This document shows positions 21,717 to 24,788 of a DNA stretch of 64,000 nucleotides, piece by piece. The notes below the pieces were generated by a model. It was not told the origin of the DNA, did no database searches, and worked only from the letters and a program-made list of their open reading frames with translations. How positions within the stretch are numbered: the first letter of the stretch is position 1; each line of letters begins with the position of its first letter. Source of the DNA: Spinellus fusiger. Lineage: Eukaryota; Mucoromycota; Mucoromycetes; Mucorales; Phycomycetaceae. The stretch spans positions 62,001 through 126,000 of the forward strand of contig JALLLS010000040.1 of the NCBI GenBank assembly GCA_025094145.1, read 5' to 3'. The position numbers and the translations under genes were made by a program.

Positions 21717-22151
21717 AAAAGCGAACTGGACTATAAAGTAGTCACAAGGTCTATTTTATACTTTGTTAGTGTTGTTTCTACTACTATCGGAGTTGAATAT
21801 TGAAGAGGTGAAAGAGACTGGGTTGGGGACGTGAGTTGAGTGAGCAAGTGAGTGACAGTTGGGCCTGAGAGAAGAGAGCCATCAGCAGACAAGGGCATTG
21901 GCAGCAGATAAAAGAATGAGCAGTCACTCCACTATGAGGAAATACACACCAGGAGATCTTTAGGTTATAAAAAGAAATAGTCGAATTATAATTGTTTAAA
22001 AATGACATTGATTTGAAAAGGAATGAAGATAAACTAAGATGTATTCATGTTAGATTTTAAACAAAAACTATGTAGATTTAACTGTAAATATCTGAATCCC
22101 ATAGGAAAACACTTTCGATGTGGCAATGTGTTATAATATGAATACAAATAT

Positions 22152-22336
22152 CTATTCTTTTCTACAGAAAGGAACTGATCGGTGGTAACCCTTTAAACAC
22201 TCTTCTACAATTGTATAGATATTCTTTGATGCATTCACATTTCTGTTCCAAACAATTCCGCAACTTTGGCAAGCGTGGATAGTGTTGAAATTCACTAATA
22301 CCTCAGTGAGAATATTTGTGTTATAAGTGTGGCAGA
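22152..22336 (-). pseudogene. C-terminal exon of a Fanzor (TnpB-like) nuclease, isolated
   Basis: Open frame of about 60 codons ending in TAG. It reads HACQSCGIVWNRNVNASKNI, the zinc-ribbon CxxC followed by the WNRDVNA...NI box that in Fanzor and TnpB carries the last RuvC residue (RuvC-III Asp). Here that residue is Asn (AAT). The ending HRSVPFCRKE is similar to the short tails of fungal Fanzors. No start, RuvC-I or RuvC-II is present in this copy, so it is a fragment. Family assignment rests on the box and on the companion fragment in copy C. Confidence 0.78.
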
Positions 22337-23004
22337 TCTTGAGAACAAAAATAAGAGTAACTGTTAGAAGAGCTTTTCATCTGGGCTTGAGCTCATTGTA
22401 ATCCATAAGGCATAGTACTGACTCTTCTTCCAATAGATAAAACATGGCTTATTATTCCCAAGACAAGTATTAAGCACAAGGTAAGCATACTATCTCTCTT
22501 ATTGAATTATTACTAATACACTCTTCTGTTATTAGATAAGTTAAGACTCTTTCTCAAGTCAGTCTCAAGTGGTCTTTTTCCTTCTATACTGTCTAAGGTG
22601 TCTAGGCTGTCTAGGGTATACTCCTGAGCATAGTTATCTATCTCCCAAGAACAAAGCACAGGGCTTTTAGGGTGTATATTCTGTTGCTATGAAGGAATAT
22701 GCCTAGAACAGCAGTGGCTATAGTAATAGTATAGTATTGGCTACAGTATTACTAGTTATATTTTTATAATAAACAATTTTATTCATAAACAATATATTCT
22801 ATTGATAATACAATTTGATATTGAGGTATCCATAAAAGGAAATAATATTTAGATACTTACAAACCTTTTGATTTTAAATACAGTTCCATAAAAAGCAAGA
22901 TACATTACTTCCAAAAATTAATGTCGCGTTTCATAAATATTTATAATACAATATATACGCAGATGTGACAAGTGAATGCGACATTACTTTTCGGAAATGG
23001 TATA

Positions 23005-24663
23005 CACTATTTTCACTTATTATTGTCGCACTTTTAGAGAAAAATATGTCGCATTAATAAATTAAAACTTGACGTACTAATGGGATAAAATATGTCGCAT
23101 TAATTAATTAAAATTTGGCATAGTAAAAGATTTAAAACTGGCGTATTCTAAGTACTTGGGGTTTTCTTACATTTTACTTTTCTTAAAAAATGAATAACAT
23201 TGTGCACGAAGACGGCCAAGGAAATATCTATAATGATGAAGGCATAGCCGTTACAGTAGTGGAGATGGAGGTAGACGAGGAGACGTACCCCATTGAGACG
23301 GTTACAAATTTCGGGATGTACCTTGACCTCAAACCACCCGAGAAGCCAGAAAGAAGAACTGTACAACAATCCGTAGACAGAGATGTCAATACGGAAGAGG
23401 ATAACAGAGCTCCTGGTATCCACAGGCATTACAAAGATTCCGAAAAAGAGCAGTTGTTTGTATTGATTTATGAAAGGGGTATGAGCGTCAGAGCTGCTGC
23501 GCTGAAACTTCAAATCCACCCACGCACTGCGCAGCGATGGTACTCAAACGATCAGCAGAACCCTCAGACATTCATTGCCAGAAAAGAAGGTAGTGGAAGG
23601 CCAGTCGGTAGACCAGCACTACTTGACGATAGCCATAAAAGATTTTTGGTCGATTTATTGGACGATCAGCCCTCTTTAGTCCTGGATCAAATGATGGAGA
23701 GTTTGAGAACGTCTTTTATTGATTTAGAGATATCGAAAACAGCTCTACAATTTTGTCACCAAAAATTGTAAGATCAGTCTGAAAAGAGCCCATTTTCATT
23801 CAGTTGATCGTAATAGTCCTGAAAAGATCAAGAATCGAAAGGAGTGGGTACAGAAATGGATGGAGACAGACATGGACTACATGAGCAACTGTGTCTTTAT
23901 AGATGAGGCGGCATTCCACATCAACATGAAGCGTACTTTTGCTTGGTCAAAAGTAGGTATTTGTGCAGTAGTAAAAGTACCAAGAACGAGGGCTAAAACA
24001 ACAACTATTATGGGAGCAACATCTGCTCAAGGCCTTGTCAACATAAAAGTAAGACGGCCTCCAATGTTGCCTGTTTCAAAGAAGAGAAAAACTGCTGGAT
24101 CTAGTGGGCCTTCTCAAAAACAAAGCAAAGGCACTGTTACTGGCCACTATCTTAATTTCTTGAGCGATACAATGGATGTCATGGACAATTTTCCAGATGT
24201 TTTCAAGGATAATTACTTGATTATGGACAACGCCCCCATCCACATGAATGAAGACATTAAAAGCTTCATTGAAGGCCGTGGGTACAAGTGTGTTTATCTT
24301 TCCCCTTAGTCACCAGAGTTGAATCCCATTGAGCAATTCTGGTCTGTTTGCAAAAGCAGGTTAAAAAGAGAAAGACTCTTGGAAGAAGAAACTCTGTCAT
24401 CTAGAATCGCCGATGCATCTAACCAAGTTCTTCTCGGTGACCTCAGAGAGTTTTGCAAATACTCTGTCGATAGATTTGAGGATTGCTTACAAGAGAAGCC
24501 TCTTTAAAAATAAAACATTTATGTCGCATTTGTCGCATCCAACTTATACGCCATCTTTTAATTTATTAATGCGACAAGTTTTTTTCCACTTGTGCGCTAA
24601 GTTTTTTTCCAAAAGTGCGACAATTTTTTTCCAAAAGTGCGACAATAATAAGTGAAAATAGTG
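23005..24663 (+). mobile_element. Tc1/mariner-type DDE transposon nested in copy A, nearly intact
   Basis: Perfect terminal inverted repeats of about 30 bp start CACTATTTTCACTTATTATT and are flanked by TA at 23003-23004 and 24664-24665. Subterminal blocks repeat the words TGTCGCATTAAT and GTGCGACAA several times at both ends (23040-23150 and 24520-24640), probable transposase binding sites. Length is 1659 bp. It inserted into the Fanzor-type element 62 bp from its right end, so it is younger than that element. A relative is cut at 1-746 and a MITE with similar ends lies at 47893-48269. Confidence 0.92.
23190..24507 (+). pseudogene. DD34E transposase, two lesions only
   Basis: Cut-and-paste transposase of the DDE_3 (Tc1-like) type. 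Order: acidic leader (VVEMEVDEETYP), helix-turn-helix (MSVRAAALKLQIHPRTAQRW), a basic GRPVGRP hook, then the catalytic core VFIDEAAFH (Asp 1), YLIMDNAPIH (Asp 2), SPELNPIEQFW (Glu) with 34 residues between Asp 2 and Glu. Only two faults are visible: a one-base frame change near 23755 (between SKTAL and NFVTKN) and a TAG at 24307 in the loop before SPELNPIEQFW. It probably died recently, and intact relatives may exist elsewhere in the genome. Confidence 0.9.
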
Positions 24664-24788
24664 TATTTTTAGACGTAAAAGGAAGGAGATATCACCGCTT
24701 AAAGGCCAGAAAAATCTTTGGGTGTGTAGAAGGAGCATAAGGTGTGACTTGTTTTTACTTAGACAAGACACTTCCTGCTCTTCTTATT

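What the first reader, a model, noticed from the sequence alone, without database searches (positions are those of the whole stretch)
21945..24726. Interspersed TIR elements in this window are Fanzor (eukaryotic OMEGA nuclease) derivatives
Four copies (21945-24726, 35710-36713, 58541-60361, 63397 onward) share terminal repeats CACACC(A/C)(G/A)..., a TA target, and pieces of one gene whose C-terminal exon reads CQSCGIVWNRNVNASKNI, the zinc-ribbon/RuvC-III box of TnpB and Fanzor. A non-autonomous family living on an RNA-guided nuclease element, moved to TA sites like a mariner, is unusual. The direct observation is the repeats, the TA flanks and the box; the family name is from motif knowledge.
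Basis: partly seen in the sequence, partly recalled or inferred. Interest (0 to 1): 0.88.

Follow-up and report, generated by a model that had tools for sequence, protein, structure and literature searches.

The report
Fungal Fanzor transposons and their remnants
The repeats in this fungal DNA are broken, shortened copies of a very numerous family of jumping genes that carry Fanzor, a eukaryotic RNA-guided DNA-cutting enzyme; this kind of element has been known since 2013, and what stands out here is the number of copies and two different Fanzor genes between the same ends.

Summary
The Fanzor reading holds; its surprise value is lower than claimed. The 38-Mb genome (inferred Spinellus fusiger, Mucorales) carries a TIR family inserted at TA: 49 of 53 intact ends have TA outside, background 8.5%. 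At one mismatch or less there are 671 right ends, 462 A-type and 458 B-type left ends; reversed-pattern controls 0. The window holds five copies, not four; none shows a complete Fanzor gene (two run off the window). Two Fanzor genes share these ends. B-type (58541-60364) is Fanzor1: an open 479-residue genomic frame matches the solved Parasitella Fanzor1 at 6e-128. A-type (21945-24726, 35710-36713) has the TnpB zinc ribbon, but its place relative to Fanzor1 is unresolved. Both window A-type copies carry Asn for the RuvC-III Asp; exact genomic matches number 173 Asp and 9 Asn. The first copy also contains an unrelated nested Tc1/mariner (23002-24667). No transposase with these ends was found in a sample, and folding gave no support for a guide RNA. 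TA-flanked Fanzor1 elements and protein-less ghost copies are published (PMC3627910, PMC10432273). New member of a known kind, unusually numerous.

The parts
1..771 (+). Right part of a fifth family copy (the whole copy is about C133:60228-62771); its last 21 bp or so (to 771) are the B-type left-end repeat with TA outside. Window 1 to about 750 is a nested, decayed Tc1/mariner with its own inverted repeats, transposase on the minus strand.
21943..21944 (.). TA flank, left side of copy 1
21945..24726 (-). Copy 1 (A-type deletion derivative, Fanzor gene direction minus) interrupted by a nested mariner
22167..22337 (-). C-terminal zinc-ribbon/RuvC-III exon of A-type Fanzor; reads CHTY (16 of 23 copies read CHTC, 7 CHTY) and RN instead of RD
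22376..22900 (-). 5' (R-end) region shared with other A- and B-type copies, here joined to the C-terminal exon by an internal deletion
23002..24667 (+). Nested Tc1/mariner, 95% identical to the copy at L027 1231-2806; not part of the Fanzor element. Transposase frame broken (ORFs 23190-23771 and 23860-24309)
24665..24726 (-). R-end terminal region of copy 1; TA follows at 24727-24728
35710..36713 (-). Copy 2, 1004-bp A-type deletion derivative, 19-bp inverted repeats (89%) counting the TA on both sides
35935..36105 (-). C-terminal zinc-ribbon exon of copy 2, also CHTY and RN
58541..60364 (-). Copy 3, B-type deletion derivative; left end TACACC, right end GAAACCC
58787..59014 (-). RuvC-region piece of B-type Fanzor1 (55% identity to Rhizopus protein P0001, 3e-19; 59% to P0002, 1e-18)
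59257..59703 (.). Inverted-repeat insert inside copy 3 (44-nt arms, 75%) with remains of a helix-turn-helix-like reading frame (naming by eye); an inverted-repeat insert lies at the same place in three other B-type copies
63397..64000 (+). Copy 4: R-end and 5' region; runs off the window, where foreign sequence interrupts it; not followed to its end

Best explanation
These are defective copies of one high-copy TIR element family that inserts at TA and carries a Fanzor gene, in a mucoralean fungus. Two versions exist: B-type elements (3.5-3.9 kb in three copies) carry a Fanzor1 gene; A-type elements (up to about 3 kb) carry pieces of a second, different Fanzor/TnpB-like gene. The ends and about 660 bp of 5' region are shared. 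Shown: the repeats, the TA flanks, the gene identities, the internal deletions and the nested mariners. Inferred: the elements encode no transposase of their own and are moved in trans by an unidentified DDE-type transposase of TA specificity; while its gene was intact, Fanzor used a guide RNA made from the element's 3' end plus flanking DNA to cut sites from which the element had left or which lacked it, so that repair copied the element back. The window copies kept the ends and coding scraps and, as far as seen, cannot make a Fanzor protein.
For: Zinc-ribbon profile hits in the window and at 150 scored genomic places. B-type frame: 479 residues open; 6.4e-128 to Parasitella Fanzor1 and 1.3e-44 to Spizellomyces Fanzor1, 66% identical to Rhizopus proteins; profile of 15 relatives 2.2e-266 to the former. 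A-type shows the parts of the published motif D-X(125-275)-[TS][TS]XX-C4-X-RD in the published order, piecewise over several copies (motif from PMC3627910). TA outside 49 of 53 intact ends (11 of 64 end matches left out as degenerate, shifted or internal; 3 of those 11 also have TA outside). Shared 5' region A/B at 75-85%. End counts with zero controls. Nested mariner identified by a free-standing copy.
Against: No transposase bearing these ends found in the sample examined. The 3' ends of 7 copies do not fold better than shuffles (z -0.7 to +2.0) and Rfam has no hit in the window. A-type does not align significantly with Fanzor1 by profile. Codon-position bias in the A-type pieces is weak, and 8 of 17 RuvC pieces are frameshifted, so much of their divergence is relaxed. 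Copies were picked for good protein matches, so they are not a random sample.
Confidence: 0.85

Rival explanations
1. The copies belong to a Tc1/mariner family whose autonomous member (transposase with the same CACACC ends) exists or existed in this genome and moves them; Fanzor is a passenger captured by it.
For: TA target; the genome is rich in Tc1/mariner-type DDE_3 sequences, 1544 first-look candidates of which 150 were scored; published cases of Fanzor1 in mariners (PMC3627910 section 7).
Against: Ends readable in 7 of 10 Tc1/mariner loci examined, none matching. The mariner-like inserts inside copies 0, 1 and 3 are nested and have different ends.
Confidence: 0.45
2. The zinc-ribbon exon is a chance or convergent resemblance and the A-type gene is an unrelated zinc protein.
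For: No significant profile alignment of A-type to Fanzor1; only one relative outside this genome found, a Rhizopus microsporus protein without a significant Pfam hit.
Against: PF07282 over its curated cut-off in genomic copies and in P0121; NCBIfam guided_TnpB is the best family for three A-type pieces (E 3e-4 to 3e-3, under its cut-off); a RuvC-I-like GVDLGRKH, the zinc ribbon and the RD box come in the published order; the element shares its ends with a real Fanzor1.
Confidence: 0.06
3. The short copies are not mere decay but ghost loci: functional sources of guide RNA used in trans by the remaining Fanzor proteins.
For: Both ends are kept in very different deletion derivatives; A-type 3' ends of 20 copies stay similar; ghost guide RNAs worked with SpuFz1 in published assays (PMC10432273, passages read).
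Against: No fold above shuffles. Retention of both ends is also what any transposase-mobilised deletion derivative would show.
Confidence: 0.3

Closest known systems
SPu-1 Fanzor1 element and its ghost copies, Spizellomyces punctatus (PMC3627910, PMC10432273)
   Same: TIRs, TA flanks, Fanzor1 gene only, no transposase found with the ends, many protein-less copies (42 loci with full or partial Fanzor genes and 134 ghost loci reported).
   Different: Here 671 right ends and 920 left ends at one mismatch or less, presumed introns in the genes, and two different Fanzor genes between the same ends.
Fanzor1 elements of Mucorales: ROr, PBl and MCi families (PMC3627910); solved Parasitella parasitica Fanzor1 (PMC11423790)
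   Same: B-type protein is a close homologue (66% to Rhizopus; 6e-128 to Parasitella Fanzor1).
   Different: The MuDr-like families described there (ROr-4, PBl-3, MCi-4) have 9-bp duplications; these have TA.
Fanzor1-bearing mariners such as PUl-4 (PMC3627910 section 7)
   Same: Fanzor1 only, TA flanks, TIRs.
   Different: PUl-4 has ends identical to confirmed mariners; no such partner was found here.
CMe-1A of Cyanidioschyzon merolae (PMC3627910)
   Same: High-copy, decayed Fanzor1 family (about 150 copies, about 80% identical to the consensus).
   Different: CMe-1A lacks TIRs.

Membership tests
Fanzor/TnpB superfamily (A-type gene of copies 1 and 2) | TnpB zinc ribbon (PF07282) | tested here: met
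   Genomic copy 30.1 bits over the 26.3 cut-off; the window pieces themselves 24.4-24.5 bits, just below it; 150 scored places in the genome, 147 marked over the cut-off
Fanzor/TnpB superfamily (A-type gene of copies 1 and 2) | Motif D-X(125-275)-[TS][TS]XX-C4-X(5-50)-RD | tested here: inconclusive
   Met only piecewise: L036 has the D 230 codons before DEFRT, with 4 stops or introns between, but RTL and CHTY; L027 and others have RTS, CHTC, CQSCG and RD, with TS-x-x-C only across a presumed intron. The two window copies lack the last Asp and one Cys
Fanzor1 clade (A-type) | Sequence relation to Fanzor1 proteins | tested here: inconclusive
   hhalign E 0.013 over 19 columns and E 0.15 over 311 collinear columns, both with very low probability; model of P0121 had pLDDT 36 and was not used
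Fanzor1 clade (B-type, copy 3) | Homology to characterised Fanzor1 nucleases | tested here: met
   Genomic B-type frame: 6.4e-128, 1.3e-44 and 2.6e-7 to three solved Fanzor1 proteins; window piece 55% identical to P0001, 3e-19
Fanzor as an RNA-guided nuclease | Guide RNA from the element's 3' end | tested here: inconclusive
   No excess folding in any of 7 ends; no Rfam hit; no expression data
Tc1/mariner superfamily (the element) | TA target site | tested here: met
   49 of 53 intact ends
Tc1/mariner superfamily (the element) | Ends shared with an element coding a Tc1/mariner transposase | tested here: inconclusive
   None of 7 readable ends among 10 loci matched; a sample, not a census

The most novel reading that the evidence does not exclude
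One set of transposon ends in one genome has carried two deeply diverged RNA-guided nucleases (a Fanzor1 and a second, hardly sampled mucoralean Fanzor lineage), and the 900 or more surviving ends form a genome-wide repertoire of potential guide RNAs read out by whatever intact proteins remain.
Probability: 0.2. Interest if true: 0.72.

Novelty: new member of a known kind. Interest (0 to 1): 0.42.

Why it matters
It shows a TA-inserting Fanzor family expanded to many hundreds of copies in a mucoralean fungus (Spinellus is, from recall, a parasite of mushrooms), with two nuclease genes on one set of ends. That makes it a natural test bed for two open questions: whether Fanzor helps its element persist, and whether protein-less copies supply guide RNAs in trans. 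The basic kind of element is already described, so the value lies in scale and in the swap of the nuclease gene.

Tried and rejected
Rejected: that 21945-24726 is a single Fanzor element (nested mariner). Rejected: that the transposase at window 1-640 is the family's own. Its outer repeat looked at first like the family's end, but the fetched upstream DNA shows that the transposase has its own inverted repeats, inserted into a TA inside the B-type left end. Rejected: a family-wide loss of the RuvC-III Asp (173 exact Asp against 9 exact Asn matches). Led nowhere: AlphaFold of the A-type protein (pLDDT 36); RNA folding of 3' ends; Rfam; solved-structure searches with A-type sequences, whose best hits were weak ones to LaTranC and Cas12m or weak and mostly unrelated, with SpuFz1 at E 0.59. 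Literature: Fanzor with Mucoromycota and Spinellus fusiger with genome gave 0 papers each; Fanzor with Rhizopus gave 2. A tblastn match of 29-30 residues to Fanzor N-terminal sequence at 33919-34008 (62% to P0036) was looked at as DNA but not resolved. No empty insertion site was sought.

Full report
What was checked. The window is G000:C133:62001-126000 of a 38.1 Mb, 197-contig genome. Protein P0121, named by its source as Spinellus fusiger, lies on a contig of 639,089 bases, exactly the length of contig C13 here, and stretches of its sequence are found at C13:411155-411778 at 96-98%. I therefore infer Spinellus fusiger (Mucorales, Phycomycetaceae); no tool stated it.

The repeats. Copies at 21945-24726 and 35710-36713 match each other at 91% over 966 bp, and the start of a fourth copy at 63397 matches them at 84-86%. 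The 1004-bp copy has 19-bp inverted ends at 89% counting the TA flanks. Matches to four end queries in loci L009-L035 and the window gave 64 ends; 53 begin with intact or near-intact CACACC-type bases, and 49 of these have TA immediately outside, against a TA frequency of 8.5% in the same DNA. The 11 others were left out because their first bases are degenerate, shifted or belong to internal truncated ends; 3 of them also have TA outside. The loci were chosen for good protein matches, so this is not a random sample.

Copy number. With at most one mismatch, the right-end core occurs 671 times, the A-type left end 462 times and the B-type left end 458 times; the reversed-pattern control gave 0 each time. 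These are counts of ends, not of complete elements.

Copy 1 is composite. Between 23002 and 24667 lies a Tc1/mariner with 44-bp inverted repeats at 95%. L027 carries the same mariner free-standing, with a 440-residue open frame, and the window copy is 95% identical to it over 1596 aligned bases. It is a later insertion, not part of the Fanzor element.

Two Fanzor genes on one set of ends. The exon with CQSCGIVWNRNVNASKNI in copies 1 and 2 is what I call A-type. Copy 3 carries instead a piece of a second gene, B-type: 58787-59014 matches Rhizopus proteins at 55-59% identity (3e-19 and 1e-18). Three B-type elements measure 3902, 3914 and 3536 bp, have the same ends, and share about 660 bp of 5' region with A-type elements at 75-85%. 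One B-type frame of 479 residues gives 6.4e-128 to the solved Parasitella parasitica Fanzor1, 1.3e-44 to Spizellomyces punctatus Fanzor1 and 2.6e-7 to Guillardia theta Fanzor1, and 243 database proteins at E 0.001 or better, the best from Rhizopus at 66% identity. The three B-type copies examined share an early in-frame stop, so they are not simply intact.

A-type. A genomic A-type piece reaches PF07282 above its curated cut-off (30.1 against 26.3 bits); the window pieces fall just short (24.4 and 24.5). Reading the L036 copy in order gives a RuvC-I-like GVDLGRKH, then DEFRT 230 codons later with 4 stops or introns between, then the zinc-ribbon exon with WNRDVNASKN. L027 and others read RTS, then across a presumed intron CHTC, CQSCG and RD. 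Together these are the parts of the Fanzor/TnpB motif of Bao and Jurka (PMC3627910, section 6 read), but no single copy was shown to have them all. Profile comparison with Fanzor1 was not significant, and only one protein outside this genome was found (P0122, Rhizopus microsporus, 1e-58; one search found only P0121); the search is limited by shared words and length, so wider occurrence is not excluded. In 23 copies of the zinc exon (22 distinct), 19 read WNRD, 2 read WNRN (both in the window) and 2 have a stop in place of the Trp but still read RD; 16 read CHTC and 7 CHTY, among them both window copies. Genome-wide exact 27-mers gave 173 Asp and 9 Asn forms. Differences from the column majority fell 74, 93 and 110 on codon positions 1, 2 and 3 in the zinc exon and 67, 48 and 89 in the RuvC piece, of whose 17 copies 8 are frameshifted by a crude count: a weak third-position excess, as expected for a family that once coded but now mostly drifts. 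A-type full-length elements also contain an internal, truncated B-type left end (76-77% in L025 and L013; sequence), which suggests fusion of two family members.

How it probably works. Shown: ends, TA flanks, gene identities, internal deletions and nested insertions. Inferred from published work on Fanzor (passages of PMC10432273, PMC10711439 and PMC11423790 seen): Fanzor binds an RNA transcribed from the element's 3' end, with the guide taken from flanking DNA, and cuts matching DNA, which could restore or spread the element. I found no folding signal for such an RNA in 7 ends and no Rfam match. No transposase with these ends turned up. DDE_3 sequences abound, but among 10 Tc1/mariner loci the ends could be read in 7 and none matched. 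The transposase at the start of the window looked promising, but the upstream DNA showed it to be nested inside a fifth family copy.

Comparison and verdict. A TA-flanked, TIR-bounded element that carries only Fanzor1 was the founding example of the group (SPu-1), Fanzor1 families are listed for Rhizopus, Phycomyces and Mucor (PMC3627910, sections 5-7, 10 and 12 read), and S. punctatus has 42 Fanzor loci and 134 protein-less ghost loci (PMC10432273, passages). PMC10711439 notes Fanzor transposons reaching hundreds of copies (passage). [quoted passage not shown] ESvi-1B and ESv-2, PMC3627910). The present family is therefore a new member of a known kind. I found no paper holding both Fanzor and Mucoromycota, or both Spinellus fusiger and genome, in the library searched; that library lacks most subscription papers.

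Noticed in passing
58531-58540 and 60358-60367: Copy 3 is bounded by a 10-bp direct repeat GGGTTTCTTA that overlaps its altered right end; the element in L011 (4665-5878) shows a similar 8-bp repeat GGTTTCTA. The cause is unknown.
   Followed up: partly
22905-23001: About 97 bp between the A-type sequence and the nested mariner of copy 1 contain a 22-nt inverted repeat (86%) with a GTCGC core resembling the mariner's subterminal repeats; possibly a further small insertion.
   Followed up: no
33919-34008: tblastn matches of 29-30 residues (48-62% identity, minus strand) to the N-terminal region of Mucorales Fanzor1 proteins, away from any copy with recognised ends.
   Followed up: partly
L025 1179-1273 of the element (also L013): A-type full-length elements contain an internal truncated B-type left end, as if two family members had fused.
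   Followed up: partly
59257-59703; L029/L033, L030, L031: An inverted-repeat insert with transposase-like remains sits at the same place in several B-type copies, so it was probably inserted before they spread.
   Followed up: partly
L042 1558-1574: A right end of the family abuts a truncated arm of a Tc1/mariner there, probably an insertion of the family into a mariner.
   Followed up: no
25231-26079: Open reading frame of 282 residues with long RD-rich repeats, in a region with 70% identical direct repeats at 25596-26073.
   Followed up: no
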